Source: a virus
Virus record (IMG/VR): IMGVR_UViG_3300042888_001941
Coordinates: 62,001 to 126,000 of that record
Reading direction: 5' to 3' (one strand)
DNA: 64,000 bases
Every line of letters begins with the position of its first letter. The first letter of the stretch is position 1. The notes beneath the pieces are model-generated. The model worked only from the letters and a program-made list of their open reading frames with translations. It was not told where the DNA came from and made no database searches. Position numbers and translations under genes: made by a program. Shown piece after piece: positions 3,341-52,743 of the stretch.

Positions 3341-3344
<4 letters not shown>
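2982..3344 (+). CDS. Fibre-associated beta protein, BppU-N-like
   Basis: A 120-residue, beta-rich protein that starts with a hydrophobic strand and Gln-Gly-Ala-Thr-Phe, then a Tyr-Thr-Ala-Arg-Leu-Gln-Val-Arg strand. It ends with a Tyr-Phe-Tyr-Asp-Leu-Glu-Leu strand and Leu-Leu-Lys-Gly-Thr-Phe-Thr-Val. This pattern resembles the N-terminal domain of baseplate upper proteins, which attaches fibres to the baseplate, and is common as a small protein before fibre genes. The assignment is by pattern only. Its stop codon overlaps the TTG start of the following long fibre by four bases (TTGA), indicating translational coupling. Confidence 0.65.
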
Positions 3345-6718
<3,374 letters not shown>

Positions 6719-38456: not shown

Positions 38457-38738
38457 TTAGCGCTCGTCGGGGTTTGATTCCTCGATTGACATATCCTCGT
38501 CTTCATTATCCCGCTCATATGGCTCTATAGGCACGTATATGCCTACTACGGTAACTTTCCCGCAGGAAATACATTCACATACCGCGCCAGGGACTAGGTT
38601 AAGAGGAACGGTCACGCTTACCAACCGCGTGATGATATTTCCATTTTCATCAACGCTATCTGGTTCCCACGTGCTATTCTCACGAATCCAGCACAACTCG
38701 CACTGAGGTGCTAGGTCTTCGTCGTAGTCTCGTATCAT
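38457..38738 (-). CDS. Small zinc-binding-like protein
   Basis: A 93-residue protein with two Cys pairs (Cys-Glu-Leu-Cys at 13-16, and Cys-Glu-Cys-Ile-Ser-Cys-Gly near 54-60). They suggest one zinc-binding site. The C-terminus is acidic. No family recognised. It is directly coupled to the methyltransferase gene, whose stop overlaps its start by one base, so the two are co-expressed. It could be a DNA- or protein-binding partner. Confidence 0.6.
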   Translation of the reverse strand: MIRDYDEDLAPQCELCWIRENSTWEPDSVDENGNIITRLVSVTVPLNLVPGAVCECISCGKVTVVGIYVPIEPYERDNEDEDMSIEESNPDER

Positions 38739-39997
38739 TACGCGCGTGCTTCCATAGGCTTAGAGTACCACTTCTTCTTTGCGGCGTGTCGAGAAAAGTC
38801 CTTATCACCGTTGATTAAGTACTCACGGTCACCAATCTTTTCAGCATTGCCTTCTTGTGGATTTCCTTCTAGTGAATCCTTAATTGCCTTCGCAATAAAG
38901 TTTCCAGCCTGCACCGCGACTGCCTTGCCCCAGACTGCAGGAAGTGCTGAGTAATCCTTAACGCTTTCAATATCCCAGTCATCGGGAAGTCCCTGCATGC
39001 GTGCAGCCTCGCGGTGAGTAATCAAGCGAGGTTCAGTTGGGTGAACAACGTGATCTAGTGCAGAGCCAGTAAGTACGTTGCACCAGTGATCTTCTTTCCA
39101 GCGATATGGTTGTGAAAACCCAAGCTTAAATTCTTTACGAATAACACGCGGAGAAATATCCATCCACTTTTGCGGGAACTCACCATTGTTCTTTTCAACG
39201 GCCTTCTTTAGCGCACCGCCAGTGTCGCCATTGCCTTCCCAGGCGTCATTTCCAATAATGCTAAAGATCTCTTCAATGCGTTGAGCATGAATATTAGTCT
39301 TGCCGATGTGACCGTTAACCATTCCATTTTTTGAGCGCAGGTGCTTATTCCACTTAGTTGCTGGAGCTGCGTACGGTTGGCTATTCCATGTCAAAGGAAG
39401 TTTAGCAAGATCTCCAATAACGTCCATAATGCGTGGAAGCTCTGTCGGCTCAATATGCGTAACATCAAACTTAATGCCACTGCGAACAGCAATCCAGAAG
39501 TAACGAGGACGATACGAGAATCCACCAACTTGTAAGTTATTGTGTTTCACGTGGTACAGGTCGTACTTCTTGCCAGACAATTCTTCTAGCATATTGCGGT
39601 ACTTAACCATTACCTCACGCCCTTGCGTGTAAGCCTGCTGCACACTCTCGTAAACAACAAACTTAGGCGCAACCTTTGCAGCGTATCTAACAAATGCGCG
39701 TGTATGCTCGTGCGCCTTAGCGTCAGGACCGCGATTAGCTTCACCAGACCACACTGACCAACCGGAGCAGGGAGGGCAACCCATAACAATGTCAGCCTTC
39801 ATTACTGGCCATTCACTCGGGTCATCTGAGAACTGAGATACCCAGTTATTTCCTAGGTGATGACGGTTAGCCTCTGCAACTGGGTTACCAAAATCAAGTG
39901 TTCCAGTGCGCAGTTTCATTTCCATACCTTGTTGAATAAAACCAAGGCTCATGAAACCAGCAAGGCCGTTGCAGTCAATAAATTGTGGGTTAGACAT
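38738..39997 (-). CDS. C5-cytosine methyltransferase-like protein
   Basis: A 419-residue enzyme of the DNA C5-cytosine methyltransferase fold. Motif I is atypical (Asp-Cys-Asn-Gly-Leu-Ala-Gly-Phe, 8-15). Motif IV is Gly-Cys-Pro-Pro-Cys-Ser with catalytic Cys77. Motif VI reads Glu117-Ser-Val instead of Glu-Asn-Val, and motif VIII has Arg163-Pro-Arg165. A target-recognition region lies about 200-300, then Arg-Leu-Ile-Thr-His-Arg-Glu-Ala-Ala-Arg-Met-Gln-Gly and motif X. It should flip and modify cytosine, perhaps for self-protection. GGAGGG precedes the ATG. The motif I/VI changes raise the chance of altered chemistry. Confidence 0.85.
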   Translation of the reverse strand: MSNPQFIDCNGLAGFMSLGFIQQGMEMKLRTGTLDFGNPVAEANRHHLGNNWVSQFSDDPSEWPVMKADIVMGCPPCSGWSVWSGEANRGPDAKAHEHTRAFVRYAAKVAPKFVVYESVQQAYTQGREVMVKYRNMLEELSGKKYDLYHVKHNNLQVGGFSYRPRYFWIAVRSGIKFDVTHIEPTELPRIMDVIGDLAKLPLTWNSQPYAAPATKWNKHLRSKNGMVNGHIGKTNIHAQRIEEIFSIIGNDAWEGNGDTGGALKKAVEKNNGEFPQKWMDISPRVIRKEFKLGFSQPYRWKEDHWCNVLTGSALDHVVHPTEPRLITHREAARMQGLPDDWDIESVKDYSALPAVWGKAVAVQAGNFIAKAIKDSLEGNPQEGNAEKIGDREYLINGDKDFSRHAAKKKWYSKPMEARA

Positions 39998-40962: not shown

Positions 40963-41448
40963 TTAGTTGTCCCCTCCTATTTCGTCTGGTAAGCACTTTA
41001 CACATATACCAAGATTTCTGCTGCGCCCAACGTCATCAATTGCGCGCTTGCATAGTTCACATTTTACGCCTTCATCTTTAACTTTGTACCCATTAAGCTG
41101 GCGTTCCTTATTGCGTTCCATTTTTTCAATATAGAACTTATCCAGCATTTCGTCTGTTCCACCCGCCGCAACGATGATATTTGCAACAAAGTGAAGAACA
41201 TCCACAGCTTCCTTAACAATTTCCTCGCGGTCCGCGTAAGGAGCATCGTGCTGCCAAGGCTTCCATGAGATAGCCTGGCGCATCTCTGCAAGTTCATCGT
41301 CAATGGCTAGCATGTTCCAGCGCATGTACTCAATCAACTTGCGAATATTCTGTGGCTTATCGCCTGTCATCTCTTCGTAGTTAATGAAGTATACGTTTTC
41401 CTGTAGATCACGTGTGCGACGCAACCAGTTATTAAACAACATTCCCAT
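40963..41448 (-). CDS. MazG/dUTPase-like all-alpha NTP pyrophosphatase with zinc finger
   Basis: A 161-residue protein. The all-alpha NTP-pyrophosphatase core (about 30-130) has the two acidic metal motifs Asp-Asp-Glu-Leu-Ala-Glu and Glu-Ala-Val-Asp-Val-Leu-His-Phe. It also has the Lys-x2-Arg-Asn-x2-Arg-Gln-x2-Gly-Tyr ending typical of dimeric dUTPases and T4 gp56-like dCTPase/dUTPases. The C-terminus adds a Cys-Glu-Leu-Cys/Cys-Val-Lys-Cys zinc finger. It should hydrolyse dUTP or dCTP to the monophosphate. In the proposed hydroxymethylcytosine pathway it would remove unmodified dCTP. Shine-Dalgarno AAAGG supports the start. Confidence 0.8.
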   Translation of the reverse strand: MGMLFNNWLRRTRDLQENVYFINYEEMTGDKPQNIRKLIEYMRWNMLAIDDELAEMRQAISWKPWQHDAPYADREEIVKEAVDVLHFVANIIVAAGGTDEMLDKFYIEKMERNKERQLNGYKVKDEGVKCELCKRAIDDVGRSRNLGICVKCLPDEIGGDN

Positions 41449-41450
41449 CG

Positions 41451-42470
41451 TTATACCTTTCCACTGTATAGCTTTAATGATTCAGTCAATGTAATTGCTG
41501 CATCTCGTTTGGTTGGGATTGCGTTTAAGTACGCGCTCCTTTGATCTTTTGCTAGTTGCATTCTTTCTTCTTGCGACATATGCTCAATTGCAGATGCAAG
41601 CTGCATCCATGAACTTCCAATGAAGCCACTTTCACGCCAGTCAGTAGCAACTGGAGTTAGAGCATTGAGACACTGAACTATGCGGTATGTCCACCATGTT
41701 CCGTTCTGGTGAGGGCTAATCAAAGCTCCTGTGCCACGAGCAATTTGATCTGCTACCTTATCGTCTGCCCAACCTTTATTCCACTTCATAGGAACTGTAG
41801 GATTGGCAAGCATGGCAATGGTTGATTTAGTCCATGGAGAAGAAAAGTTTTCTACTACCCATTTATCAGTTCGTTCAGAGTCAGAAGGTTCTGGCTCTGT
41901 GATTAAGTACCTATCAAGGTTAATTCCTTTAAGACTATTTCGCGCTGGTTCATGCAGTTGCTCTTGAATGTTTTCCTGCGCGGTCCACGGTAGCGTTGGG
42001 TACAACGTAGTAGCCCACTCGTTCGTAAGAAGCGCGTCTACAGTCTCTAGGAGACTCTTTAAGACATCAGGAGCGTTAGCTTGCGTATAACCTTTGCGAT
42101 ATGAGTAAAAAGGCTTCACAAGGTTGTCTGGGTTCTTTTTAATGGCGCGTAGACTAGACACGATGCGCGTAGGCTCTGGCGCGTCAATATAGAAAGATAG
42201 ACGACTGTCACCGCGAAGTAAACCTATAACCTTAAGAGCTCCATAGGTTCTATTTGCACTAAGACTAGTGATAGGGCTTAATCCAACAAGAATTTTGTTA
42301 AAACTCTTTAGGTCATCAAGCGTCCAGGACATTTCAGGATCTGATTGAGTGACCTCGTGCCCTTGTTGAGTAAGCACGTGTACTAGCAAACTTGCAAACG
42401 ATAACGTGCGTTTGTTTGCGTCTGCTGATACGTGTGGAGCAGACATGCCAGTTATAAGAATTTTGCTCAT
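41451..42470 (-). CDS. GT-B-like glycosyltransferase candidate
   Basis: A 339-residue protein starting Lys-Ile-Leu-Ile-Thr-Gly-Met-Ser-Ala-Pro, with a Rossmann-like N-terminal half. The C-terminal half contains Ala-Leu-Ile-Ser-Pro-His-Gln-Asn-Gly-Thr-Trp-Trp-Thr-Tyr-Arg, a GT-B-like donor-site region. The neighbour at 42467 has the corresponding Leu-Ser-Pro-Pro-Tyr-Pro ... Gly-Trp-Trp-Arg-Ser-Arg, so the two are distant paralogues. Proteins of this kind can glucosylate modified bases, as in T4, but protein or lipid targets are also possible. It overlaps the next gene by four bases. Confidence 0.65.
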   Translation of the reverse strand: MSKILITGMSAPHVSADANKRTLSFASLLVHVLTQQGHEVTQSDPEMSWTLDDLKSFNKILVGLSPITSLSANRTYGALKVIGLLRGDSRLSFYIDAPEPTRIVSSLRAIKKNPDNLVKPFYSYRKGYTQANAPDVLKSLLETVDALLTNEWATTLYPTLPWTAQENIQEQLHEPARNSLKGINLDRYLITEPEPSDSERTDKWVVENFSSPWTKSTIAMLANPTVPMKWNKGWADDKVADQIARGTGALISPHQNGTWWTYRIVQCLNALTPVATDWRESGFIGSSWMQLASAIEHMSQEERMQLAKDQRSAYLNAIPTKRDAAITLTESLKLYSGKV

Positions 42471-43678
42471 GCACGAGTCCCATCTGCGTTTAACGCAATA
42501 CCTTTGTCCTCACGAACGGCACGCTCAATGATGCGATTACAGTGCTCAACAAACGCTGAGTACTCAGGGATGTAAGGCTTAAGTGCTTCCTGTTGCGCAA
42601 TTGCCGCCGCAGCTAATTCAGCATCACTCATCTTCTCAACATCAGCAATTGTAAGCTTATAGGCGTCACCTAATGGATCACCTTCGCCCTTATCAGTAAC
42701 AAGAATAGACCCCACGTGCGCTGCGTATAGGAAACGACTACGCCACCAGCCAGAACCAGCGTGTGGGTAAGGTGGTGAAAGAATACCCCAGTGATTATTG
42801 TAGAACTCAAGTACGTCCTGCTCTGTGTCAAAGCGTTGGCCGCCAAGCTTCTTAATAAGTTTACGACTGCCTACAATTTCAACGGGCCACTCTAATGATT
42901 TACGTTCTAGCCAATTATCGTGCGGCATGAGAGCGCCAAGTACCCATGCACGCTTTTTATCAGCCGCAGGTTTTGCAATCACGGGCTGTAACGTAGGAAT
43001 GATAGTTGCTGTTGGGTCAAGAGCTTCAATAGGACCTAATTCATCAGGCATACGCTTGCGAACAATTGACCTATCACCAAATCCATACATAGGGCATACT
43101 GGAACCATGCCAGCTTCCCATCGCTTATCTACAAGATCAGTTGCTGCTTGAACAAGACGCTTTTCCCATGGTTTAATGTTTTCATCGTTGTCCATCATGT
43201 AATAACGTTCGATGTAGCACTTTTTCGCCGCCGCAGGGTTAACCTCACGGATTCTTTCAAGTGCAGCTTCAATGTCTGCGCGACTAAAGTAAGTTGCGCC
43301 TTCTTCACCGCGATGTTCAGTTCCTACAAGCAGATGCTTATACAACATCGCAGGTTTACGAATTAGCGCACGTGCTCCGTTGAATACAGTATTAAACTGC
43401 CAATCATCAAAGAAACCAACACAAGGAATGCCAGATGACAAAGCGTAGAGTGCACCCATCGCACCTTGGCGACCATTTAATGAGTTAAGGGGTGCAAGAT
43501 TGATCCACAGTACGTCATAAGATGACAGGTCTTCGCCAGGTGTAATCTTGCGCCAGTCAACATCGTGACCAGACTCACGCAATGCCCGAGCAATAGACGC
43601 AGGTACGTCAATCTTTTGAATAGTTCTTTTTTCTGTGTTTATCTGCAAAGCAGTAAACCCACTCATTAGAACTTTCAT
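42467..43678 (-). CDS. GT-B-like glycosyltransferase candidate
   Basis: A 403-residue protein. The N-terminal domain starts Lys-Val-Leu-Met-Ser-Gly-Phe-Thr-Ala-Leu. The second domain has Ala-Trp-Val-Leu-Gly-Ala-Leu, Pro-Val-Glu-Ile-Val-Gly-Ser-Arg and Trp-Gly-Ile-Leu-Ser-Pro-Pro-Tyr-Pro-His-Ala-Gly-Ser-Gly-Trp-Trp. This is consistent with a GT-B fold binding a nucleotide sugar. It shares the Leu/Met-x-Gly and Trp-Trp features with the 41451 product. A strong AAGGAGG precedes the ATG. It lies in the DNA-metabolism block, not the fibre locus, so DNA is an attractive acceptor (inference). Confidence 0.65.
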   Translation of the reverse strand: MKVLMSGFTALQINTEKRTIQKIDVPASIARALRESGHDVDWRKITPGEDLSSYDVLWINLAPLNSLNGRQGAMGALYALSSGIPCVGFFDDWQFNTVFNGARALIRKPAMLYKHLLVGTEHRGEEGATYFSRADIEAALERIREVNPAAAKKCYIERYYMMDNDENIKPWEKRLVQAATDLVDKRWEAGMVPVCPMYGFGDRSIVRKRMPDELGPIEALDPTATIIPTLQPVIAKPAADKKRAWVLGALMPHDNWLERKSLEWPVEIVGSRKLIKKLGGQRFDTEQDVLEFYNNHWGILSPPYPHAGSGWWRSRFLYAAHVGSILVTDKGEGDPLGDAYKLTIADVEKMSDAELAAAAIAQQEALKPYIPEYSAFVEHCNRIIERAVREDKGIALNADGTRA

Positions 43679-43757
43679 ACTACCTCCTTGTGGTTAAGTA
43701 CATTTGGAACACCGTCTGAACTTTACCAGGACAGACGGCGAACCAGACGCACTTAAA

Positions 43758-44324
43758 TTAGAACGGTGCTGCCGGTGGAGCCGCTGCTACAGCAGGTGCT
43801 GCTTCAGGGGCTGGTGCGGGTACTGCCTCAGCAACAGGTGCAGGTGCTGGAGCTGGTGCAGGTGCTGGTGCAGGTGCTGGTGCAGCAGCTGCAACTGGTG
43901 CACCTGGTGCAGGTATTGCAGATGTGTAGTAGTTCTTGATTTCGTTCTTCTTCTGACCCTGCCAGGTGCGAGAAGTAACAGCCGCACGGAATGCACGACC
44001 ACGAATCGCTTGCTCAATCTGAGCGTTTGATGGGTTAGTTGCGAAGAACTCGCGACCAAGACCAAGTGCCATCATCTTACGGAAGAACATTCCGAGAGCT
44101 GCGTTGTTGTCTGGTGTAACTACGAGGTTGTCCCAGATAAGTCGCTTTGCGTGCGCGCCATTTTGAACCTGTGCCTTAATAGCGAACATTGTTTTGCCAG
44201 ACTGTGAAGTCTTAGCAGTTGCTTCCACGATGACTAAATCATAGTCACCGTCTGGAAGTGGATCGTAGCCAGTTGATACTTCACCAGCTTCTTTGACGAG
44301 ATCTCCCCAATTGAGTGTACTCAT
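43758..44324 (-). CDS. DUF669-like, putative ssDNA-binding protein
   Basis: A 188-residue protein. The N-terminal domain (1-130) has the beta pattern of DUF669 proteins (Leu-Pro-Asp-Gly-Asp-Tyr-Asp-Leu-Val-Ile-Val, Lys-Arg-Leu-Ile-Trp-Asp-Asn-Leu-Val-Val, Gly-Met-Phe-Phe-Arg-Lys-Met), which are thought to bind single-stranded DNA. The C-terminal 50 residues are an Ala/Pro repeat and a short tail. It sits beside a Sak4-like ATPase and a Cas4/RecB-like nuclease, the usual context for a phage recombination module. The Ala-Pro tail is encoded by 12-base repeats at about 43836-43884. Confidence 0.72.
   Translation of the reverse strand: MSTLNWGDLVKEAGEVSTGYDPLPDGDYDLVIVEATAKTSQSGKTMFAIKAQVQNGAHAKRLIWDNLVVTPDNNAALGMFFRKMMALGLGREFFATNPSNAQIEQAIRGRAFRAAVTSRTWQGQKKNEIKNYYTSAIPAPGAPVAAAAPAPAPAPAPAPAPAPVAEAVPAPAPEAAPAVAAAPPAAPF
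43836..43884 (-). repeat. Short tandem repeats encoding Ala-Pro
   Basis: GGTGCAGGTGCT-type units repeat in register and encode the Ala-Pro tail of the DUF669-like protein. Confidence 0.7.
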
Positions 44325-44330
44325 AGCGGG

Positions 44331-45098
44331 TTAGTTTCCTTTCGTAGTTGGAGTTGCTTGTGCTTTTGGTCCGAAAATCATGTCGAGCATGCGTTCGATT
44401 CCAAGGTCTTGCTGTTCAACGATCTTTCCAAGTCGACCTTGTACTCGCTCGCCTGCTTCGTACTCGTCTGTACGTTCTACATACATACGTCTTGCCTTGA
44501 ACGGTGGTTGCAGTGGATCTGGATTTGGATGTGTCTCCACTGTAATTGCGCCAAGAATGTCGTAGAAGTATGGTGCTTGAATTGCAAGCTGACCCTGTAG
44601 GTACGGACGTGAACGACCGTCTGCTCCAGGACGAGCCATAGCAGTTAGCACAACAGCTTCTAGAGGTTGTGTAGGGTGCATTGTAAGGTCACGTAGGTCA
44701 CGCAATAGCGCACCCATATGACGAAGCAATTCGCCCCATTGTTGCATCTTCATTTGTTCAGTACCTGCAATTGAATCCATGCACTTCACTTGAAGTTCAG
44801 AGATAGAGTCAATGATGAGTGACTTGAACTGATGCTTTCCAGTTTGTAACCACTGGAATGTTTTAAGAACAACATCGTAGTCGCGAACGTTCACGACAAC
44901 TGTGTCCCAGGTGCCATCGGCAACTGGAGGTTCTTCTCGAATTGGATCCCAATACTTTACGGTGATAGGTAGGAAACGATGCCCACCTTCAACGTCAAGC
45001 ATGAGACGTGGATATGGTGCTGTCACCGCAAAGGTTGATTTTCCAACCTTTGACTCGCCATACACCATGATAGTGACCGAACGTTGTACTTCAGACAT
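44331..45098 (-). CDS. Sak4-like RecA-fold ATPase
   Basis: A 255-residue ATPase. Walker A is Gly-Glu-Ser-Lys-Val-Gly-Lys-Ser-Thr near residues 13-21, and Walker B-like Ser-Leu-Ile-Ile-Asp-Ser near 93-98. The sensor region has Glu-Ala-Val-Val-Leu-Thr-Ala-Met-Ala-Arg. This matches the AAA_24/Sak4 single-strand annealing and recombinase group. With the DUF669-like and Cas4/RecB-like neighbours it forms a recombination unit. I chose the ATG at 45098, five bases after AAAGGAAG, over a GTG one codon earlier. Confidence 0.85.
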   Translation of the reverse strand: MSEVQRSVTIMVYGESKVGKSTFAVTAPYPRLMLDVEGGHRFLPITVKYWDPIREEPPVADGTWDTVVVNVRDYDVVLKTFQWLQTGKHQFKSLIIDSISELQVKCMDSIAGTEQMKMQQWGELLRHMGALLRDLRDLTMHPTQPLEAVVLTAMARPGADGRSRPYLQGQLAIQAPYFYDILGAITVETHPNPDPLQPPFKARRMYVERTDEYEAGERVQGRLGKIVEQQDLGIERMLDMIFGPKAQATPTTKGN

Positions 45099-45140
45099 CA
45101 CTGCTTCCTTTCATCTTTTTGTTTGTTTGCTTTTGTAACA

Positions 45141-46073
45141 TTATGCATTTCCTTTTTTCTCTTCCGTAGACTTGTAATAGTCGTACGGATCAGCGGACTG
45201 GAAGGCGTCTTCAATTGCAGCCTCAGCGGCAGACCCATCATCAAACATAGGACAGATGCTGAAGAATGAGCATTTCCACTTGCAATCACGCGTTGCGTGT
45301 GGGTAGGCAATAAATCTATGATCTCCGCCTTCGTCAAGGTACTTGCGAGTATTCATCATGTCGGTAAGTACTCCGTGAATACGCTGCCAGAATGAGCGCA
45401 AGGCAAACACGTTGTGACGTACTTCCATCTGCTCATAGAAGGGAGGACGCGCATTTGCAGAGCGCTTTACCTTCTTGAGCATAGTAAAGATTCCACCCTC
45501 AGAGCGTTCACCTTCTTTGTTCTGCGCTGTCTCGAGCATCATATAGGTAAGAATCTGTTCGTTCATGTGCGCCATAGACGCAAAGTCAGTAAACGAACCA
45601 CCGACTGTCTTGAAGTCGCGGAACATACGCACACCGTCAGCCTTACGACGAACACGCATATCAATCTTGCCTTGCAGAATAACACTGTCGTCCATAAGAG
45701 GCATTTCAATAATTTCTTCAGTAGAAATCATTTCTAATTCAGCATCAATGCCGTTCTCTTCAACCCACTGTATGTACCCATCAAGCATGATGCGCCCAAG
45801 TTCAGCCTCGGACTCAAGGTCATAGGTATCACGGTAGCTTTCAATAAGCTTTTGCTTATCAATTTCAACAAGTTGTGAGTGCGCCTCAAGCAAAGGTATG
45901 TTCTTTGAGTAGTACATATCTAGAGCTTCGTGAACGCGTGAACCAAGCGCAAGTGCGCCTGTCATCTGTTGCGTCTTAGGTTGTAAGCGACGGTAATAAC
46001 TCAACCACCATCTCCTACGACAATCTTTGAAGGTTTGGATCTCTGAGTTAGAGATTCGTATAGGTTGGGTCAT
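45141..46073 (-). CDS. Cas4/RecB-like PD-(D/E)XK nuclease
   Basis: A 310-residue nuclease. The N-terminus has Ser-Asn-Ser-Glu-Ile-Gln-Thr-Phe-Lys-Asp-Cys-Arg-Arg and Gly-Ser-Arg-Val-His-Glu-Ala-Leu. Catalytic motifs are Gly-Lys-Ile-Asp-Met (Asp) and Asp-Phe-Lys-Thr (Asp-x-Lys). A C-terminal Cys cluster follows (Cys-Lys-Trp-Lys-Cys-Ser-Phe-Phe-Ser-Ile-Cys-Pro), which with Cys18 could hold a [4Fe-4S] cluster as in Cas4/AddB. It should resect DNA ends for recombination. The stop/start overlap with the helicase gene is four bases. Confidence 0.85.
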   Translation of the reverse strand: MTQPIRISNSEIQTFKDCRRRWWLSYYRRLQPKTQQMTGALALGSRVHEALDMYYSKNIPLLEAHSQLVEIDKQKLIESYRDTYDLESEAELGRIMLDGYIQWVEENGIDAELEMISTEEIIEMPLMDDSVILQGKIDMRVRRKADGVRMFRDFKTVGGSFTDFASMAHMNEQILTYMMLETAQNKEGERSEGGIFTMLKKVKRSANARPPFYEQMEVRHNVFALRSFWQRIHGVLTDMMNTRKYLDEGGDHRFIAYPHATRDCKWKCSFFSICPMFDDGSAAEAAIEDAFQSADPYDYYKSTEEKKGNA

Positions 46074-47872
46074 AGTTTTCCTGCCTTATCGTCCTTGAGT
46101 AGTGATAGAAGCTTTTCTTTATCGCGAACAATTTGTTCAAAGTTATCAGCCTTAGTTTCGAGAACCTGAATAACACGTTCCTCAATAGTTCCATCAGTTA
46201 CATAGTCTGTAACGATAATTGAGTCGTGAATTTCAGATCCAATTCTATGAACACGGTCAAGTGCTTGGCGATGATCAACTAGTGACCAAGGACGCTGCAG
46301 CATGATAAGACGACGAGCTGCAGTCAGTGTAATGCCAACACCGCCAGCCTGTGCTGTAAATAGAATCCATTTAATCTTGCCAGATTGAAAGTCGTCAACC
46401 GCTTGTTGGCGCTCATCTTCATCCTGCATTCCAGTGATGAGACCGTGCTCAATCTTTTCCTTAGTAAGCTCAGCGCTTAGCAAGTAAATTAGTTGACGTG
46501 ATACTGCGCAAACGGCAACGGAGTCATCACCAAAGTCTCCAGCCTTCATGTCGTCAATAACTGCATCTACCTTTGCAGATGGCGCAATAAGTGATGTTGT
46601 GATTTCGCCCGTCTCTTCATCTACAGCCATTTCAGCGTATGAACTAGCGAACTGCAGTAGTCGAATAGTCTGAGTTAGCGGACTTGGAGCTGTTATAGCG
46701 TCGCCGTCTTCTAACTCGGCAATCATAAGATCGCGCATCTGGTTGTAAGCCTTTTGCTGTTTAGTGCTCATCTCAACATCGCGACGTTCAAACATCATTT
46801 CTGGGAGCCAAGGAAGTACCTTTGCCTTTAGCATACGACGCATTCTTGGGTTAAGTCCTTGATAGAACTCTTGTTCCATATGAGGCTTGATGCCTAGAAC
46901 CATCATGCCGCCAAAGGCATTCAGCATAGTGTTAACCATGCGTTCAATCCAACGTGTCTTGCTTGGCCACTCTTCAGGGCTAATCCAGTGAAGGATTGCC
47001 CATAGGTCAAGCACATTGTTTGCAATAGGTGTACCAGTTAGCGCGTAACGAATATCAGCATTTCCAGTTGCAGCCCATAGCGCACGTGTCTGCTTAGATT
47101 TTGGCTCCTTAGAGCGGTGAATTTCATCTGCAATTACTGCCCTAAAGTCGATCTTGTTAAGTTCTCGTATGTGAACCTCGCAACGATTCTCTGTAACCTT
47201 CTCATCGTGGCCGCCGCAGTCCTTGCAACGAGCAAGCGCAACTGACCCATAGGACGCTAATCGTGAGTGAGTGCGCAGTGATTCCCAGTTGATAACATAG
47301 ATATCTGCATCTTCCTCGAACTGTTTACGGCGTTGAGCAGTAGATCCTTTGATAACCACCACCTTGCGACCTGGCCACCATCTGTCAAACTCACGCTTCC
47401 AGTTTTTCTTTAATGTATTAGGGCACACAATAAGCGCTGGGAAGATTTCTTCACCGCCATCTTGTAACCATTTAAGCGCACGAATTGCTTGAGCTGTTTT
47501 ACCTAAACCAGGTTCATCTGCAAGTAAAGCTCTACGGGCTGTTGCTAGAAACTTGACGCCCGCGCGTTGATGAGGGAACAGGTCCTCGTTGCCCTCTTCC
47601 AGGGCCTCGAGTTCACGAAGTTCGTTCGCTGGGGTAATACGTGTCGCCAATTCATTGGCCGCCCAGGACCCTAATCTAGGTCCTATAGTAAGGTCAGTTT
47701 TGAAGGTAGAACGTAGCGCTAGGCATGTTGCCCAACTTGTAGGCACGGACCACAACTGCGCACCTGGGTCCCATTTAGCTCCAGGTATAGATTTGCAAAG
47801 TTCCTTAAAGCGCCACTCTGCATTTATAACTATGCGCTTGTTTGATTCGTCAAGCTCTACGGCTACTGCCAC
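46070..47872 (-). CDS. SNF2-family helicase/translocase
   Basis: A 600-residue ATPase. Motif I Ala-Asp-Glu-Pro-Gly-Leu-Gly-Lys-Thr lies near 122-130, motif II Ala-Asp-Glu-Ile-His near 250, and Ala-Leu-Thr-Gly-Thr-Pro-Ile-Ala-Asn-Asn near 277-286. The second RecA lobe contains Gln-Ala-Gly-Gly-Val-Gly-Ile-Thr-Leu-Thr-Ala-Ala and Asp-His-Arg-Gln-Ala-Leu-Asp-Arg-Val-His-Arg-Ile-Gly. This is a DNA translocase or remodeller of the SNF2 type used by phages in replication and recombination. I prefer the GTG at 47872 over the TTG one codon earlier because AAAGGA is better spaced. Confidence 0.9.
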   Translation of the reverse strand: MAVAVELDESNKRIVINAEWRFKELCKSIPGAKWDPGAQLWSVPTSWATCLALRSTFKTDLTIGPRLGSWAANELATRITPANELRELEALEEGNEDLFPHQRAGVKFLATARRALLADEPGLGKTAQAIRALKWLQDGGEEIFPALIVCPNTLKKNWKREFDRWWPGRKVVVIKGSTAQRRKQFEEDADIYVINWESLRTHSRLASYGSVALARCKDCGGHDEKVTENRCEVHIRELNKIDFRAVIADEIHRSKEPKSKQTRALWAATGNADIRYALTGTPIANNVLDLWAILHWISPEEWPSKTRWIERMVNTMLNAFGGMMVLGIKPHMEQEFYQGLNPRMRRMLKAKVLPWLPEMMFERRDVEMSTKQQKAYNQMRDLMIAELEDGDAITAPSPLTQTIRLLQFASSYAEMAVDEETGEITTSLIAPSAKVDAVIDDMKAGDFGDDSVAVCAVSRQLIYLLSAELTKEKIEHGLITGMQDEDERQQAVDDFQSGKIKWILFTAQAGGVGITLTAARRLIMLQRPWSLVDHRQALDRVHRIGSEIHDSIIVTDYVTDGTIEERVIQVLETKADNFEQIVRDKEKLLSLLKDDKAGKL

Positions 47873-47900
47873 CAATCAATCCTTTCGTCGTTATGTATAC

Positions 47901-47910
47901 ATACTAACAC
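47901..47910 (-). promoter_or_regulatory. Extended -10 promoter candidate
   Basis: On the minus strand GTGTTAGTAT lies about 28 bases before the SNF2 gene, in the only sizeable gap of the central block (47873-47954). Confidence 0.5.
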
Positions 47911-47954
47911 GCTTTTACAAAAAAGAAACTACATTTTGACCTAGTAAGTGGTTT

Positions 47955-48407
47955 TTATTGAAGTAGGCGTAATGGCTTCCAACCTACCTTTACACAGCGG
48001 AGTAGCCCATGGCGTATCGCATCAAGTGCGTGGCCTTCGCCACCACGGTGCCAATACTCTAGTTTCTTTAGTTTTGGATTATCAAACATTGCCTTAGCGT
48101 CTGCAGGAGATTGAAAGTAGATGTCATCTGCCTTTCTCCCTGCGTCCATAAGACACTGCTTGAGAATACCAATCTGCTCCAGTGAGTAAGGCGCCTGTGA
48201 GTTTTTTACCGTCTGCATGTTGATGGTAAATCTTTCACAGACAACCTCAGCCTCAGGATAAAGACTTAGTGTTTCACGAATAGGTTTGGCGTACTCGTCT
48301 TGCTGGTATTCTCCAGACCAAAGCATCACTGGCTCTTGCCCTTGCTCAAGCGAGAACAAAGCCATTCCTGTCGCCTTACCTGGGTCTACTGATAGTACGT
48401 ATTTCAT
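47955..48407 (-). CDS. RuvC-like Holliday junction resolvase
   Basis: A 150-residue nuclease with the RNase H/RuvC fold. Asp8 sits in Leu-Ser-Val-Asp-Pro-Gly-Lys-Ala-Thr-Gly, Glu58 in Val-Val-Cys-Glu-Arg-Phe, and a C-terminal Gly-Glu-Gly-His-Ala-Leu-Asp-Ala-Ile-Arg-His supplies acidic residues. It should cleave branched DNA before packaging. Its start overlaps the stop of the polymerase gene by four bases. Homologous proteins are common in actinophages. Confidence 0.85.
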   Translation of the reverse strand: MKYVLSVDPGKATGMALFSLEQGQEPVMLWSGEYQQDEYAKPIRETLSLYPEAEVVCERFTINMQTVKNSQAPYSLEQIGILKQCLMDAGRKADDIYFQSPADAKAMFDNPKLKKLEYWHRGGEGHALDAIRHGLLRCVKVGWKPLRLLQ

Positions 48408-50230
48408 CGGTATTTTTCGCCCCAGTTCTCCATAGGTCCGTCGATTCCAGATGTAAGTGGGACTTCCCAGCCTTCTCTAGTAGTCATGCATTCTTGCACA
48501 ACCTTCATAATCTCTTGCGCGTCCTTACGCGGAGCATTCAACACAATTTCGTCGTGTACAGGAACGATAAGAAGTTCGGTTAAATCTGCCTGGTCGAGTT
48601 TAATCAAATTAGACTTAAAGACTTCAGCCGCGCCTCCTTGAATTAAGTAATTCACAAGCGTGTAAGCTCTATCTTCATCGCAAGGAAGCCTACGGCCTGT
48701 CCATGTGTAGACGTATCCTTGTCCTTCTTGCCTAAAACGTCTAACGCCTGCGTCTTCAATTTGCTTTTGGAAGAACGCCATTCCAGGGAATCTCATATCA
48801 AACGCATCTGATACCGTGCGCATCTGAGGCTCAGCAACGCCTGCAGTTAACGCTTGCTTTGCAACGCCTGCGCCATAGAGTCGTCCGTAGACAGTTCCTT
48901 TAATAAGATTACGGCGCTTATCTGAGCGCTGCATCGTTGGGTCATTGTAGATCTCGCGTCCAATCTCGGTAAACGGATCTGAGCCTGTAGCATCTGCGCG
49001 ATTAAACAACGTGATGAGATTCTGGTCACCAGACAGAGATGCGAACATACGGAACTCAACCTGGTCAAGGTCCGAGGTAATAATGACGTGGTCTTCATCC
49101 TTAGGTATAAACGCTGTGCGAACAGTGTCATCACCCTTAGGCAGTGTCTGCAGCGCTGGGTTTTGTATAGACATACGTGACGTACGAGCGCCAAGAGTCT
49201 TGACAGATGGGTGAACAAACCCATTCACATTGTCGTTAATAAAGTTAGCAAAGTAGGTATTGGCAAGTTTATCTGCCTTACGCTGCTTAAGAACAACCTC
49301 GGCTAGAGCCTTTACCTCATCATTTCCTGTAATTGAAAGTAACTTAAGTTGATCCTTAGATGCAGACTTCTGTCCTGAAGGTGTAAATTCAAAGATCTCT
49401 CCGCCAAGAGATTCAAACAACCGCACCAATTGAATGTTACTTGAGATTGATACGCCGTTATACTTTTCCTTTGCCCAGCCTTTAACAGACTCAGCATAGG
49501 CGGTTAGCTCATCAAACTTACGCTTAGAGTAATCTAGGTCAATACGAGCGCCATTGATTTCCATACGAGTAACAATGCGGCGTGCTGCCATTTCCAATTC
49601 ATACGCCTTGTTGTACGGTCCTCCTGGGCCACACTTTTCCCAGAACATTTCCCACAGACGCATTGTAAGAACGCAGTCGAGTGCGCCGTACGCCCAGTAC
49701 GGTTGGAAGTTAGTAGGAACAGTTCCCCACGTCCAGCCATTTTCAATAAGTGAAATATCAAGTGATTCCTGCAATGCAACTGCACGACCATCAACGTGTA
49801 ATGCAGCAAGACGTTTTAGCGCCCCAGACCCAAGCGGATCAATGATGTGCGCCATAATCATAGTGTCATGCGCACGGTGCCAAGGCAGTTTCCAATCTGA
49901 CTGAATATCAAACCAGCGAGCTTCAAACGCAATGTTGTGGCAGACTATAGGTCCATCAAAGCGCTCCATTGCCTCATAGAACACGCCTTTCCACTGGTCC
50001 CATGGAATCGACCAACCTTGCTCTGCATCGCCCACCTGGACCAAACGTAGGCGTCCATGCCATGGTGATAGCGCATGGTCACGTGGGTTACCAGGCAACT
50101 CACCAGTTTCAGTGTCGATTGCGATAGCGTTATGTGGACGGCGTTGGCCAATCCACTCAAGAAACGCTTGAGCTTTTTCAACGCTGTCAACAAGGTGAAG
50201 TTGAACGTCCTGCATGCCTTTAGTTGTCAT
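48404..50230 (-). CDS. DNA polymerase I (family A) with 3'-5' exonuclease
   Basis: A 608-residue replicative polymerase. The 3'-5' exonuclease domain (about 1-215) has Asp39-Thr-Glu41. The polymerase domain has motif A Ser-Asp-Leu-Asp-Gln-Val-Glu-Phe-Arg near 383-391. Motif B is Arg-Arg-Asn-Leu-Ile-Lys-Gly-Thr-Val-Tyr-Gly near 435-445, and motif C is Pro-Val-His-Asp-Glu near 560. Motif B has Tyr where E. coli Pol I has Phe762, as in T7 polymerase. No 5' nuclease domain is present, as usual for phage enzymes. It would incorporate hydroxymethyl-dCTP if the modification pathway is real. Confidence 0.95.
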   Translation of the reverse strand: MTTKGMQDVQLHLVDSVEKAQAFLEWIGQRRPHNAIAIDTETGELPGNPRDHALSPWHGRLRLVQVGDAEQGWSIPWDQWKGVFYEAMERFDGPIVCHNIAFEARWFDIQSDWKLPWHRAHDTMIMAHIIDPLGSGALKRLAALHVDGRAVALQESLDISLIENGWTWGTVPTNFQPYWAYGALDCVLTMRLWEMFWEKCGPGGPYNKAYELEMAARRIVTRMEINGARIDLDYSKRKFDELTAYAESVKGWAKEKYNGVSISSNIQLVRLFESLGGEIFEFTPSGQKSASKDQLKLLSITGNDEVKALAEVVLKQRKADKLANTYFANFINDNVNGFVHPSVKTLGARTSRMSIQNPALQTLPKGDDTVRTAFIPKDEDHVIITSDLDQVEFRMFASLSGDQNLITLFNRADATGSDPFTEIGREIYNDPTMQRSDKRRNLIKGTVYGRLYGAGVAKQALTAGVAEPQMRTVSDAFDMRFPGMAFFQKQIEDAGVRRFRQEGQGYVYTWTGRRLPCDEDRAYTLVNYLIQGGAAEVFKSNLIKLDQADLTELLIVPVHDEIVLNAPRKDAQEIMKVVQECMTTREGWEVPLTSGIDGPMENWGEKYR

Positions 50231-50699
50231 TCAAGTCCTTAAATATCGTTACATCAATTTCACATTTGGCGAAATACTCAACTGTGGCCTCTGGGTTTCT
50301 ATGAGCTGCAATCGTGCTAACACGCATAACAACTTTAGATACTCCAGAGTTAGAAATCAGCTTTGCGCATTGAATGCACGCTGCGTCGGTAATATACACT
50401 GTCCCGCCCTCAACTCGTGAGCGATCTACGTAGAGAAGCGCATTTGCCTCTGCATGAATAGATGGGCAAGAATCGTAAACGTTATCCAGAGGAGTTTCAC
50501 CGCGAGCACGAGCGCACCAGTTCATGCACTCGCCTTCCGCAGGAAACGTAGCAGCAGGACCGTTGTATCCCGTTGAGCTAATACGTTGATCCTTTGAGAC
50601 TACAACCGCACCTATTTGAGCGCGGCTACAACGAGATCTAAGAGCTACTGTATCTGCGACAGTCATCCACACCTCGTCCCATGATGGACGATTACTCAT
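50220..50699 (-). CDS. dCMP deaminase
   Basis: A 159-residue zinc enzyme of the ComEB/dCMP deaminase family. It has His82-Ala-Glu84 and Cys108-Ile-Gln-Cys111, plus the N-terminal Arg-Ser-Arg-Cys-Ser-Arg-Ala-Gln-Ile-Gly-Ala-Val-Val and the Tyr-Asn-Gly motif. It converts dCMP to dUMP and feeds thymidylate synthesis. It overlaps the polymerase and the next upstream gene. In T4 the dCMP deaminase coexists with dCMP hydroxymethylase, the same pairing proposed here. Confidence 0.92.
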   Translation of the reverse strand: MSNRPSWDEVWMTVADTVALRSRCSRAQIGAVVVSKDQRISSTGYNGPAATFPAEGECMNWCARARGETPLDNVYDSCPSIHAEANALLYVDRSRVEGGTVYITDAACIQCAKLISNSGVSKVVMRVSTIAAHRNPEATVEYFAKCEIDVTIFKDLNDN

Positions 50700-50874
50700 T
50701 CATACCTCGAAACAGCGAGTGCTTCATTGCCTCGGAGACAAGAAACATAGCTTCCCTACGAGAAAATCCAGCAGTCTTTAACTCTTCATACATAACGTGA
50801 AGAGTAATGGAAGCCTCACGTAAAGGAGAAAGATAGAGTTCTTCTGCCTTTTCATGTTCTTCCTTACTTGCCAT
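50692..50874 (-). CDS. Small helical protein
   Basis: A 60-residue charged, helical protein (Glu-Glu-Leu-Tyr-Leu-Ser-Pro-Leu-Arg-Glu, then Phe-Ser-Arg-Arg-Glu-Ala-Met-Phe-Leu). No family recognised. I chose the ATG at 50874, preceded by GAGGAGAAAG, rather than an upstream reading that would extend further into the synthase gene. It overlaps the synthase-family gene at its start and the deaminase at its end. Confidence 0.6.
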   Translation of the reverse strand: MASKEEHEKAEELYLSPLREASITLHVMYEELKTAGFSRREAMFLVSEAMKHSLFRGMNE

Positions 50875-51736
50875 TTTCTTTCTCCTCGTTCTTTTCAATA
50901 GCACGAATCATTGCGTTTGCGTACCACTGCTCAAACGGATGTAGATTAAAGAGTAGAGTCTTTTCCTGCTTGTGAATAGCAGCTGTAAGAGCTCCTTCAG
51001 CACGTCGTTGTACCTGTTCCCAGCTAAGTCCAGTAATAGGTGGAATGTCCTCATACGGCTCAGTTGTATGCTTTAGGTTTTCAGCCGCGTCGTAATGCTG
51101 TTCATAGATATGAAGAGATCCAACGTGATGAGCGTACGTGCCTGCTTGAATTCCTAGAACAGATGCCATAGCAATCTGAACACGCGTAAACTGGAAGAAG
51201 TCGTATGCAGCTCCTAGCCATACATCGTTTGAGCGCATGTAAACACTCATGTTAAGTTTATTGTCACGGATACGGAACTGATGCAAGATTGTACACGGGT
51301 AATCGCGCTTACTTGGCAAAAGATCAAGTACTGGATCCCAGATGGTAACAACCGCTTGTCGTGTATCTGGGTCTGCTTTTAATCGCTCAATAACAGGACC
51401 GTACTGGTCAATAGTACGTGAACCGTACGCACCATGGAATAGTCCATTGTCCTCTGCGTAGTTCTTAAACATTGGACCTACTGCCATAACAAGCTTAGGC
51501 GTTGTTGCGCCTGCAAGTAGCTGACATGCTTCAACCGCACCAATACCAGGAACAGTTCCGCGGTTAACACCTAGTGGTAGTGTGTCATGCACATTCTCAA
51601 TGCGAATTATTGCGTCCTCAATCTCACGGGTCTTCATACCGCGAGGAGCAGCCTCTTTACCGTGCTTAAGAACGTGCTGAACAAGGTCAACATAGCCGTT
51701 AACTCCGTCAGGAATGTTAATTATTGCAGTATCCAT
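50864..51736 (-). CDS. Thymidylate synthase family, probable dCMP hydroxymethylase
   Basis: A 290-residue enzyme. Catalytic Cys148 lies in Tyr-Pro-Cys-Thr-Ile-Leu-His-Gln-Phe. The phosphate-binding Arg168-Ser169 is followed by Asn-Asp-Val-Trp-Leu-Gly. The nucleotide-base position, Asn in true thymidylate synthases (L. casei Asn229, 31 after the Cys), is Asp179 here, also 31 after the Cys. T4 gp42 dCMP hydroxymethylase uses Cys148 and Asp179 as well. The His-x3-Leu-His-Ile-Tyr motif is present. The reaction would be dCMP plus methylene-tetrahydrofolate to hydroxymethyl-dCMP. It overlaps the kinase gene. A dUMP-using phage thymidylate synthase remains the alternative. Confidence 0.85.
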   Translation of the reverse strand: MDTAIINIPDGVNGYVDLVQHVLKHGKEAAPRGMKTREIEDAIIRIENVHDTLPLGVNRGTVPGIGAVEACQLLAGATTPKLVMAVGPMFKNYAEDNGLFHGAYGSRTIDQYGPVIERLKADPDTRQAVVTIWDPVLDLLPSKRDYPCTILHQFRIRDNKLNMSVYMRSNDVWLGAAYDFFQFTRVQIAMASVLGIQAGTYAHHVGSLHIYEQHYDAAENLKHTTEPYEDIPPITGLSWEQVQRRAEGALTAAIHKQEKTLLFNLHPFEQWYANAMIRAIEKNEEKENGK

Positions 51737-52743
51737 GGATCATCCTCTTTCAGTTTGTTATCGGCGCTTTGTTGTATTGCTTGTCCATACTCTAGACTGT
51801 TCTTGTAATTAAATCGTCGTACGTGTTGCGGGTGCGGCAGTACATCATACTCGCTTGCAGGAATTCCAGCCGCCATGATTCCTTTTTCGGCGTTTCGTCC
51901 TAAGGCAACAACACGTGGTGACCCAAGGTCTTCCCAGAGATCATACAGATCATCAATGTCAATATCTGCTACGTTAACAATTCCACACTTGGGCCATAGC
52001 TCTGTAGGAAGAGCGCTGAGTAGAAAATCACCGGAGTTATTATCAACAGGCATGAATGGAAGCTTAGTTTCCTCGCCGTACTCCTCAAGGATATTGCGCT
52101 TATCTCCAACAAGCAAAACCTTAGGTGTAGGGCTTCCAATATACGTAGGATACTTTGTAAGAATAGGTTGAACTAGCCCAGACATTGCCTCAGCAACGTC
52201 AACAATATGTTTGGCAAGCTCTGGAACACTATCAAGGCTGTCGGCTGGAGGAGTAAGACGCTCGGTTAAACTTACTGACACGGCTGACGCAATAGAGTAG
52301 TTCTCAAGGATTTCCTTAAGGTCACTTACCTTTACGAACTCGTCACCGCGAGATTCTAGACGACGCTGAATAACATCAAGAGGTTGATACAACCAAAAGG
52401 AGGCAACTCCACGAGACATGAGAAAGAGTTCAACCCAACGCCAACCAGCTTTACCTAGTAGACCAAAGCCGTCGGTGTTTGTGAGAGGACGGTACTTAGG
52501 AGCGTACGTTATTTCGCCCCAGTGCCAGCGGTCTGACAGACCATTGCAATCTTGTGAAAAGTTAATGTGCTCTACACTATTAACGTAATCCTTAAGGACC
52601 CAACGGCGTGTCTCTTCAAGCGGACGACCTTTGTGAAACTGCATGAAGTGCTTATCGGGGTGACGCCGTTTGATTTCATTGGCAACTGCCTCAATAAGCG
52701 AGGTTTTACCAGATGCGTCGGTTCCTTCTATAACTATAAACAT
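51721..52743 (-). CDS. dNMP kinase fused to uracil-DNA-glycosylase-like domain
   Basis: A 340-residue two-domain protein. Residues 1-205 form a thymidylate-kinase-like P-loop domain (Gly7-Thr-Asp-Ala-Ser-Gly-Lys-Thr14, and Leu-Ser-Asp-Arg-Trp near 70). Residues about 210-340 match the uracil-DNA-glycosylase superfamily outline: Lys-Val-Leu-Leu-Val-Gly, Leu-Pro-Phe-Met-Pro ... Ser-Gly-Asp-Phe-Leu-Leu, Val-Val-Ala-Leu-Gly-Arg-Asn-Ala, and Leu-Pro-His-Pro-Gln-His. The catalytic Gly-x-Pro-Gly-x-Glu is not preserved. The kinase would raise modified or normal dNMP to diphosphate. The glycosylase-like half may bind a base or nucleotide rather than excise it. AAAGGA precedes the ATG. Confidence 0.8.
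   Translation of the reverse strand: MFIVIEGTDASGKTSLIEAVANEIKRRHPDKHFMQFHKGRPLEETRRWVLKDYVNSVEHINFSQDCNGLSDRWHWGEITYAPKYRPLTNTDGFGLLGKAGWRWVELFLMSRGVASFWLYQPLDVIQRRLESRGDEFVKVSDLKEILENYSIASAVSVSLTERLTPPADSLDSVPELAKHIVDVAEAMSGLVQPILTKYPTYIGSPTPKVLLVGDKRNILEEYGEETKLPFMPVDNNSGDFLLSALPTELWPKCGIVNVADIDIDDLYDLWEDLGSPRVVALGRNAEKGIMAAGIPASEYDVLPHPQHVRRFNYKNSLEYGQAIQQSADNKLKEDDPWILQ

What the first reader, a model, noticed from the sequence alone, without database searches (positions are those of the whole stretch)
40963..52743. A T4-like route to glycosylated hydroxymethylcytosine DNA in an actinophage
In one leftward block lie a MazG/gp56-like pyrophosphatase (40963), two GT-B-like glycosyltransferases (41451, 42467), a DNA polymerase (48404), dCMP deaminase (50220), the gp42-like enzyme (50864) and a dNMP kinase (51721). 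Each maps to a T4 counterpart in cytosine hypermodification. I know of no well-established example in a low-GC actinophage.
Basis: inference. Interest (0 to 1): 0.8.

Follow-up and report, generated by a model that had tools for sequence, protein, structure and literature searches.

The report
Sugar-coated hydroxymethylcytosine DNA in actinophages
This uncultured phage of actinobacteria carries the genes to replace cytosine in its DNA with hydroxymethylcytosine and add sugar to it, as phage T4 does, but with a virus-only family of sugar-adding enzymes that appears uncharacterised and that lab-grown Gordonia phages share, so the idea can be tested now.

Summary
In detail: every named gene is at the stated coordinates. 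The central reading, a T4-like route to glycosylated 5-hydroxymethylcytosine (hmC), is well supported by sequence and gene order; no chemistry has been done. The thymidylate-synthase-like enzyme has the full dCMP-hydroxymethylase residue signature, invariant in 96 relatives, and lacks the RB69 (5-hydroxycytosine) and dUMP signatures. The MazG-like protein is a T4 gp56-type dCTPase homologue. Both glycosyltransferases are predicted GT-B folds, one resembling T4 beta-glucosyltransferase, but neither belongs to the T4 families by sequence. GT2 belongs to an uncharacterised, essentially virus-only family. In 80 other viral contigs it lies just downstream of a dCMP hydroxymethylase (53, all with the hmC signature) or a TET/JBP-type oxygenase (15), never both; in 47 a UDP-galactopyranose mutase gene follows directly, suggesting a galactofuranose donor in those phages. 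In the window's own clade the sugar slot is swappable while hydroxymethylase and GT1 stay. Cultured Gordonia phages (GMA2, GodonK, Forza) carry the same module, so nucleoside mass spectrometry would settle it. The donor sugar here and the conserved cytosine-5 methyltransferase are unexplained. New variant of a known kind.

The parts
51721..52743 (-). dNMP (thymidylate-like) kinase with an extra C-terminal domain (possibly uracil-DNA-glycosylase-like); overlaps the hydroxymethylase ORF by 16 nt
   Evidence: PHROG 761 thymidylate kinase 3e-13; PDB YorR 1.5e-4; C-terminal UDG hint only E 0.15 in the DSL-LC01 orthologue
50864..51736 (-). dCMP 5-hydroxymethylase (thymidylate synthase superfamily)
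   Evidence: best PDB match MilA CMP hydroxymethylase 5e-23; E69, R126, D145, C148, S169, D179 match the dCMP-hydroxymethylase signature and are invariant in 96 relatives
50220..50699 (-). dCMP deaminase
   Evidence: PF00383 1.6e-18; PHROG 174 1e-42
48404..50230 (-). DNA polymerase family A with 3'-5' exonuclease
   Evidence: PF00476 2e-52
42467..43678 (-). GT2: predicted hmC-DNA glycosyltransferase (GT-B fold), phrog_14998-type virus-only family
   Evidence: family HMM built without actinophage members: 7e-47; model matches T4 BGT 1qkj 4e-5 and AGT 1y6g 1e-3; family linked to dCMP hydroxymethylase or TET and UGM
41451..42470 (-). GT1: paralogue of GT2, predicted second DNA glycosyltransferase; overlaps GT2 by 4 nt
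   Evidence: AlphaFold pLDDT 93.6, GT-B folds in PDB; homologous to GT2 by profile; GT2-GT1 4-nt overlap in 140 of 150 loci
40963..41448 (-). T4 gp56-like dCTP/dUTP pyrophosphatase
   Evidence: hhalign to T4 gp56 96.8%, 2.2e-10, about 40% identity over 83 columns; PF08761 4e-11
38738..39997 (-). C5 cytosine DNA methyltransferase conserved with the module; role unexplained
   Evidence: PF00145 1e-23; motifs PCS, ESV, RxR, REAARMQGLPDDW; conserved in DSL-LC01, GMA2, GodonK, Forza
43758..44324 (-). DUF669 protein marking the edge of the variable sugar slot
   Evidence: PF05037 9e-8; same gene precedes GT2 or the alternative cassette
44331..48407 (-). replication/recombination genes inside the block: RecA-like AAA, PD-(D/E)XK nuclease, SNF2-type helicase, RuvC-like
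   Evidence: same order in DSL-LC01, where they are annotated
37889..38416 (-). pyrimidine-dimer DNA glycosylase (T4 endonuclease V family)
   Evidence: PF03013 3e-20

Best explanation
The block is a DNA-base hypermodification module that replaces cytosine by glycosylated 5-hydroxymethylcytosine. The gp56-like enzyme (40963) removes dCTP to give dCMP. The thymidylate-synthase-family enzyme (50864) hydroxymethylates dCMP using methylene-THF. The adjacent kinase (51721) and host kinases raise it to hmdCTP, and the family A polymerase incorporates it. After replication the GT-B enzymes GT2 (42467) and GT1 (41451) add sugar to hmC in DNA, probably in sequence or at different contexts, and so shield the DNA from restriction. 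Shown: gene content, residue signatures, homology, predicted fold, gene linkage. Inferred: all activities, order of the GTs, and biological role. Not known: the donor sugar. In other phages the GT2 family is coupled to UDP-galactopyranose mutase, so a furanose (galactofuranose) donor is the leading guess there; this phage has no recognisable mutase and would have to take its donor from the host.
For: Hydroxymethylase: D at Cys-3 (T4 Asp145, the residue that activates the water; Leu in thymidylate synthase) and D at T4 Asp179 (Asn in dUMP enzymes), plus R and S at the two sites that turn MilA from CMP to dCMP (residues from PMC6400193); all invariant in 96 relatives and distinct from RB69-type E/MRSQN enzymes. 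dCTPase: aligns to T4 gp56. GTs: predicted GT-B folds, GT2 matching T4 BGT and AGT. GT2 family in 80 other viral contigs (24 clusters): 53 with an upstream TS-family enzyme (7-1658 bp), every one of the hmC signature; 15 with a TET/JBP-type oxygenase instead; 47 with UGM directly downstream; all on the same strand. Almost absent from 84,980 cellular genomes: one hit, itself hydroxymethylase-GT-UGM. Two T4-like phages with GT2 and UGM also carry true dCMP hydroxymethylases. Module conserved in cultured Gordonia phages and DSL-LC01. MetaGPA found Asp177 in thymidylate-synthase homologues to mark modified-cytosine phage DNA (PMC8670742).
Against: No chemistry on any member. GT1 and GT2 have no solved sequence relative and the GT2 model is only moderately confident (pLDDT 77). 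A C5 cytosine methyltransferase with intact motifs is conserved in the module, odd if all cytosines already carry a C5 substituent. A few relatives lack GT2, although they replace it with another sugar cassette. No UDP-sugar biosynthesis gene was recognised in the phage itself.
Confidence: 0.82

Rival explanations
1. The DNA carries glycosylated 5-hydroxycytosine (RB69/NP type): the TS-family enzyme is a 5-hydroxy-dCMP synthase and the sugar is attached directly to C5-OH.
For: Such enzymes are TS-superfamily homologues of hydroxymethylases and exist in T4-like phages (PMC13390438); a sister group here carries a kinase, HAD phosphatase and NTP-transferase sugar cassette that resembles the RB69/Thanatos set.
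Against: RB69, Ac42 and a Rhizobium phage enzyme have Glu at Cys-3 and MRSQN instead of Asp and MRSND; the window and all 96 relatives have Asp like T4 gp42, MilA and SPO1 gp29. None of the 53 GT2-linked enzymes is of the RB69 type.
Confidence: 0.06
2. The TS-like enzyme and kinase only serve nucleotide supply (dTMP), and the two glycosyltransferases decorate virion proteins or host surface glycans.
For: Annotated as thymidylate synthase and hypothetical proteins in relatives; dCMP deaminase is present and no ThyX was found in the phage; UGM in DSL-LC01 was read as a cell-wall gene (PMC10611076).
Against: Asp at position 179 and Asp at Cys-3 do not fit the known dUMP-using thymidylate synthases. 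GT2 family members sit beside hydroxymethylases or a TET/JBP oxygenase across most of 24 clusters, and are nearly absent from cellular genomes.
Confidence: 0.05
3. hmC is present but only partly glycosylated or only partly replaces cytosine, with C5 methylation at remaining cytosines by the 38738 methyltransferase.
For: The conserved C5 methyltransferase with intact motifs; a different C5 methyltransferase also lies next to GT2 in 12 other viral contigs.
Against: Two overlapping GT genes kept in almost all relatives argue for substantial glycosylation.
Confidence: 0.15

Closest known systems
T4 glucosyl-hmC pathway (gp56, gp42, gp1, agt, bgt)
   Same: dCTPase homologue, dCMP hydroxymethylase signature, dNMP kinase, dCMP deaminase, two GT-B glycosyltransferases; also a T4 endonuclease V-type glycosylase nearby
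   Different: family A polymerase; hydroxymethylase from another branch of the superfamily (grouped with phage G and SPO1 enzymes in a small tree); GTs not sequence members of the T4 families; an added C5 methyltransferase; sugar unknown
RB69/NP arabinosyl-hydroxycytosine (Mosigvirus) and Thanatos deoxypentose-cytosine
   Same: TS-superfamily enzyme plus sugar genes; the sister cassette (GT-like, kinase, HAD, NTP-transferase) resembles their sugar-supply genes
   Different: key residues differ from RB69 (Asp/MRSND here, Glu/MRSQN there), predicting hydroxymethyl and not hydroxyl
TET-based hmC phages with TET-associated glycosyltransferase (TAGT)
   Same: same acceptor base expected; the GT2 family is found next to TET/JBP oxygenases in other phages
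   Different: no Tet_JBP match in this genome; GT2 has no Pfam match, so it was not recognised as TAGT
Brevibacterium phage LuckyBarnes (PMC6588365)
   Different: 50.8-kb singleton; no residue, family or chemical analysis in that paper; not compared here by sequence
Actinomycetia phage DSL-LC01 and Gordonia phages GMA2, GodonK, Phendrix, Forza, Sixama
   Same: same module and order; hydroxymethylase 62% identical in DSL-LC01 and about 34-40% in Gordonia phages
   Different: DSL-LC01 has UGM between GT2 and GT1; Gordonia phages carry further GTs; none was interpreted as an hmC pathway in the papers found

Membership tests
dCMP 5-hydroxymethylase | Asp at T4 D179 position (dCMP instead of dUMP) | tested here: met
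   D179; invariant in 96 relatives
dCMP 5-hydroxymethylase | Asp three residues before the catalytic Cys (T4 D145, water activation) in place of TS Leu | tested here: met
   KRDYPC; 95 of 95 relatives with a residue there
dCMP 5-hydroxymethylase | catalytic Cys148 and Glu60 | tested here: met
   C148 and E69
dCMP 5-hydroxymethylase | deoxy preference over CMP: Arg and Ser at MilA K133 and A176 | tested here: met
   R126, S169; MilA has K, A
dCMP 5-hydroxymethylase | makes 5hm-dCMP | not testable with these tools
   needs enzyme assay
5-hydroxy-dCMP synthase (RB69 type) | Glu at Cys-3 and MRSQN motif | tested here: not met
   Asp and MRSND; the feature is inferred from three sequences, not from published mutagenesis
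thymidylate synthase / dUMP hydroxymethylase | Asn at position 177/179 | tested here: not met
   Asp
T4 gp56 dCTPase | sequence homology including the VD..HF..N.....Y..K...N..RQ..GY motif | tested here: met
   hhalign 96.8%, 2.2e-10
T4 gp56 dCTPase | hydrolyses dCTP | not testable with these tools
   related solved proteins are dUTPases
T4 alpha/beta-glucosyltransferases | sequence homology | tested here: not met
   profile comparison with BGT below 8% probability; no PDB sequence hit. AGT was compared by fold only
T4 alpha/beta-glucosyltransferases | GT-B fold | tested here: met
   GT2 model: BGT 1qkj 4.1e-5, AGT 1y6g 1.2e-3; GT1 model pLDDT 93.6, matches GT-B enzymes such as SenB
GT2 virus-only family (phrog_14998 type) | match to family HMM built from other viruses | tested here: met
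   7e-47 for GT2, 1e-11 for GT1; T4 BGT no hit
GT2 virus-only family (phrog_14998 type) | adjacent UDP-galactopyranose mutase (in 47 of 80; frequent, not defining) | tested here: not met
   no PF03275 in this virus record; DSL-LC01 has it
TET pathway | Tet_JBP oxygenase in the genome | tested here: inconclusive
   no hit in the virus record, but the control genomes were silent too; the same model does match phage C48C1
TAGT (TET-associated glycosyltransferase, Pfam) | match to a Pfam family | tested here: not met
   no Pfam family at E up to 1 for GT1 or GT2

The most novel reading that the evidence does not exclude
GT2 represents an unrecognised, virus-only family of hmC-DNA glycosyltransferases that use a furanose donor (UDP-galactofuranose made by the adjacent UDP-galactopyranose mutase, or taken from hosts that make it, as Mycobacteriales do), giving galactofuranosyl-hmC DNA in many T4-like, siphoviral and actinobacterial phages. 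The slot between the DUF669 gene and GT1 acts as an exchangeable sugar cassette on a fixed hmC base.
Probability: 0.45. Interest if true: 0.78.

Novelty: new variant of a known kind. Interest (0 to 1): 0.64.

Why it matters
It points to a large group of actinobacterial phages, mostly uncultured, whose DNA is probably hypermodified. It also names a virus-only glycosyltransferase family whose genetic partners (dCMP hydroxymethylase or TET, plus UGM) predict both its acceptor base and its donor sugar. If right, it adds a sugar chemistry on DNA that I found no report of in the papers searched, supplies candidate enzymes for hmC labelling and mapping, and explains a possible restriction-evasion trait in phages of Gordonia. 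Cultured members make it testable at once.

Tried and rejected
Near-identical DNA in named phages: none. UGM, Tet_JBP and ThyX in the virus record: none found (the Tet_JBP control genomes were silent). 5-hydroxy-dCMP synthase reading: rejected on residues. Sequence homology of the GTs to T4 BGT: not found, nor to any PDB sequence. The papers by Lee et al. 2025 and Mahler et al. 2025 on hydroxycytosine glycosylation are not in the library, so I know them only through PMC13390438. Paper searches for galactofuranose or UGM in phage DNA modification gave nothing relevant. A paper on the phage HY126 glycosyltransferase (PDB 9ir0), which matches both models, was not found. The C-terminal domain of the kinase could not be identified beyond a weak UDG hint. 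The two genes at 53804-54981 with 2OG-Fe(II) oxygenase-type matches were considered as base oxygenases; they match other 2OG-Fe(II) families, not Tet_JBP, and were set aside.
Full report
What is there. The window is bases 62001-126000 of a 136,434-bp uncultured virus record. A WhiB-type regulator and its relatives, a Dishui Lake actinophage and Gordonia phages, point to an actinobacterial host. GC is about 47%. Family scans give a dUTPase_2/dCTPase-like protein, two unassigned proteins, a family A DNA polymerase, a dCMP deaminase, a thymidylate-synthase-superfamily enzyme, a thymidylate-kinase-like protein and, just downstream, a C5 cytosine methyltransferase. One correction: the polymerase is family A, unlike T4's.

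The hydroxymethylase. The best solved relative is MilA, a CMP 5-hydroxymethylase. The published T4 structure paper (PMC6400193) gives the diagnostic residues: Asp179 selects dCMP over dUMP; Asp145, three residues before the catalytic Cys148, activates the water that becomes the hydroxyl and is Leu in thymidylate synthase; K133R and A176S turn MilA from CMP to dCMP. The window protein has all the dCMP-hydroxymethylase states (E69, R126, D145, C148, S169, D179), and these are invariant in 96 homologous ORFs from viral contigs. A side-by-side table separates four classes: hydroxymethylases of dCMP (T4, Aeromonas phages, phage G, the window clade and Gordonia phages), hydroxymethylases of dUMP (SPO1; the Montesquieu sequence has the same residues), thymidylate synthase, and RB69-type enzymes with Glu and MRSQN. 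The last class is reported to make 5-hydroxy-dCMP, not hmdCMP (PMC13390438); the window is not of that type. In a small tree the window, DSL-LC01 and Gordonia enzymes group together (0.98) beside SPO1 and phage G, not with T4 gp42, so the T4 likeness is functional and not one of direct descent. An independent study found that Asp at this site marks modified-cytosine phage DNA (PMC8670742).

The dCTPase and kinase. The 40963 protein and its Gordonia and DSL-LC01 orthologues align to T4 gp56 over 83 columns at about 40% identity (hhalign 96.8%, 2.2e-10). The kinase ORF overlaps the hydroxymethylase ORF by 16 bases, as expected if its substrate is the new nucleotide (inference).

The glycosyltransferases. 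GT1 folds with high confidence (pLDDT 93.6) and GT2 with moderate confidence (76.9). Against the PDB, GT1 matches GT-B enzymes such as SenB, and GT2 matches MshA and T4 beta-glucosyltransferase (1qkj, 4.1e-5), with T4 alpha-glucosyltransferase further down; both match a phage HY126 glycosyltransferase. By sequence profile neither is related to T4 BGT, but they are related to each other. GT2 scores 7e-47 against a family profile built only from other viruses.

What GT2 relatives do. I took 80 viral contigs with GT2 relatives, found with a query set in which only DSL-LC01 belongs to this actinophage group, and looked at the neighbours. In 53 a TS-superfamily enzyme lies 7-1658 bp upstream; all 53 carry the dCMP-hydroxymethylase residues (one lacks the N-terminal Glu column), and none is of the RB69 or dUMP type. 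In 15 a TET/JBP-type oxygenase lies there instead, never both. In 47 a UDP-galactopyranose mutase follows directly, usually in a short overlap. Twelve have a C5 methyltransferase next. All partners are on the same strand (115 of 115). The 80 contigs fall into 24 sequence clusters, so this is not one lineage counted many times. Named examples: cyanophage C48C1 has Tet_JBP (3e-17), GT2 and UGM and no hydroxymethylase; T4-like Aeromonas avDM4 and Erwinia FBB1 have GT2, UGM and a true dCMP hydroxymethylase. In 84,980 cellular genomes the scan confirmed one relative, on a 20-kb contig with hydroxymethylase-GT-UGM; the scan depends on a short pattern, so it may miss divergent members. Together this ties GT2 to hmC in DNA and makes protein or lipid glycosylation unlikely.

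Own clade: a fixed base and a changeable sugar slot. Among 45 related contigs that reach far enough, 37 carry both GT2 and GT1. The GT1 start lies at the last sense codon of GT2, a 4-nt overlap, in 140 of 150 loci (ORF ends there exclude the stop codon; loci overlap between searches, so they are not all independent). In a sister group GT2 is replaced, in the same place, by another GT-like gene plus a phosphotransferase-like kinase, a HAD phosphatase and an NTP-transferase, while hydroxymethylase, GT1, dCTPase and methyltransferase remain. In DSL-LC01, UGM lies between GT2 and GT1. Gordonia phages have further GTs there. The simplest reading is one hmC base with interchangeable decorations.

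What stays open. The window phage has no UGM by family search, so its donor is unknown; UDP-galactofuranose is plausible only if the host makes it. The C5 methyltransferase is conserved from Gordonia phages to the window with intact motifs, which is puzzling on fully substituted DNA. It may act on residual cytosine, on host DNA, or early in infection; I cannot tell. No chemical data exist for any member found here. The GMA2 paper noted glycosyltransferases and methylases as possible anti-restriction genes but did not propose hmC in the passages read (PMC4524720); the DSL-LC01 paper read UGM as a cell-wall gene (PMC10611076). LuckyBarnes is an annotated actinophage precedent for hydroxymethylase plus two GTs (PMC6588365).

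Verdict. A glycosylated-hmC pathway is the best explanation (0.82). As a kind it is known from T4; the enzyme families, the UGM link and the swappable slot make it a new variant.

Noticed in passing
window 38738-39997: A C5 cytosine methyltransferase with intact catalytic motifs is conserved with the hmC module in Gordonia phages, DSL-LC01 and the alternative-cassette phages; a different C5 methyltransferase sits next to GT2 in 12 other viral contigs. Why an hmC phage keeps one is unexplained.
   Followed up: partly
L228:10001-14277, L233, L231, L230, also L069, L074, L088: Sister phages replace GT2 by another GT-like gene, an APH-like kinase, a HAD phosphatase and an NTP-transferase, resembling the sugar-supply genes of RB69/Thanatos, while keeping the hmC-type hydroxymethylase and GT1.
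   Followed up: partly
L032:10849-11889: In one relative a GT-A-like glycosyltransferase gene (by eye) is inserted between hydroxymethylase and dCMP deaminase.
   Followed up: no
window 51721-52158 (C-terminal part of the kinase): The dNMP kinase has a conserved C-terminal domain with a weak uracil-DNA-glycosylase-superfamily hint (E 0.15 in the DSL-LC01 orthologue).
   Followed up: partly
window 37889-38416: T4 endonuclease V-type pyrimidine-dimer glycosylase in the same block.
   Followed up: no
window 53804-54981: Two tandem genes with PHROG matches of the 2OG-Fe(II) oxygenase type (one also Pfam 2OG-FeII_Oxy_3); the PHROG name 'ferrochelatase' looks like a misannotation.
   Followed up: no
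L005:1588-2574 and L005:3303-3866 (same virus, outside the window): A histone-deacetylase-domain protein (1.5e-52) and a proteasome-subunit-like protein encoded by the phage.
   Followed up: no
L006:17992-19998 (same virus, outside the window): Possible glycan gene group by eye (glycosyltransferase-like, nucleotidyltransferase-like) with a FkbM methyltransferase (PF05050).
   Followed up: no
window 3341-6718: 1125-aa protein with collagen triple-helix repeats, followed by a serine recombinase at 7130-7789 near glycine-rich genes.
   Followed up: no
L014:10586-14033 (phage C48C1): TET/JBP oxygenase, GT2-family and UGM genes overlap head to tail in a Kyanoviridae phage: a compact candidate for sugar-modified hydroxymethyl-pyrimidine DNA.
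   Followed up: yes
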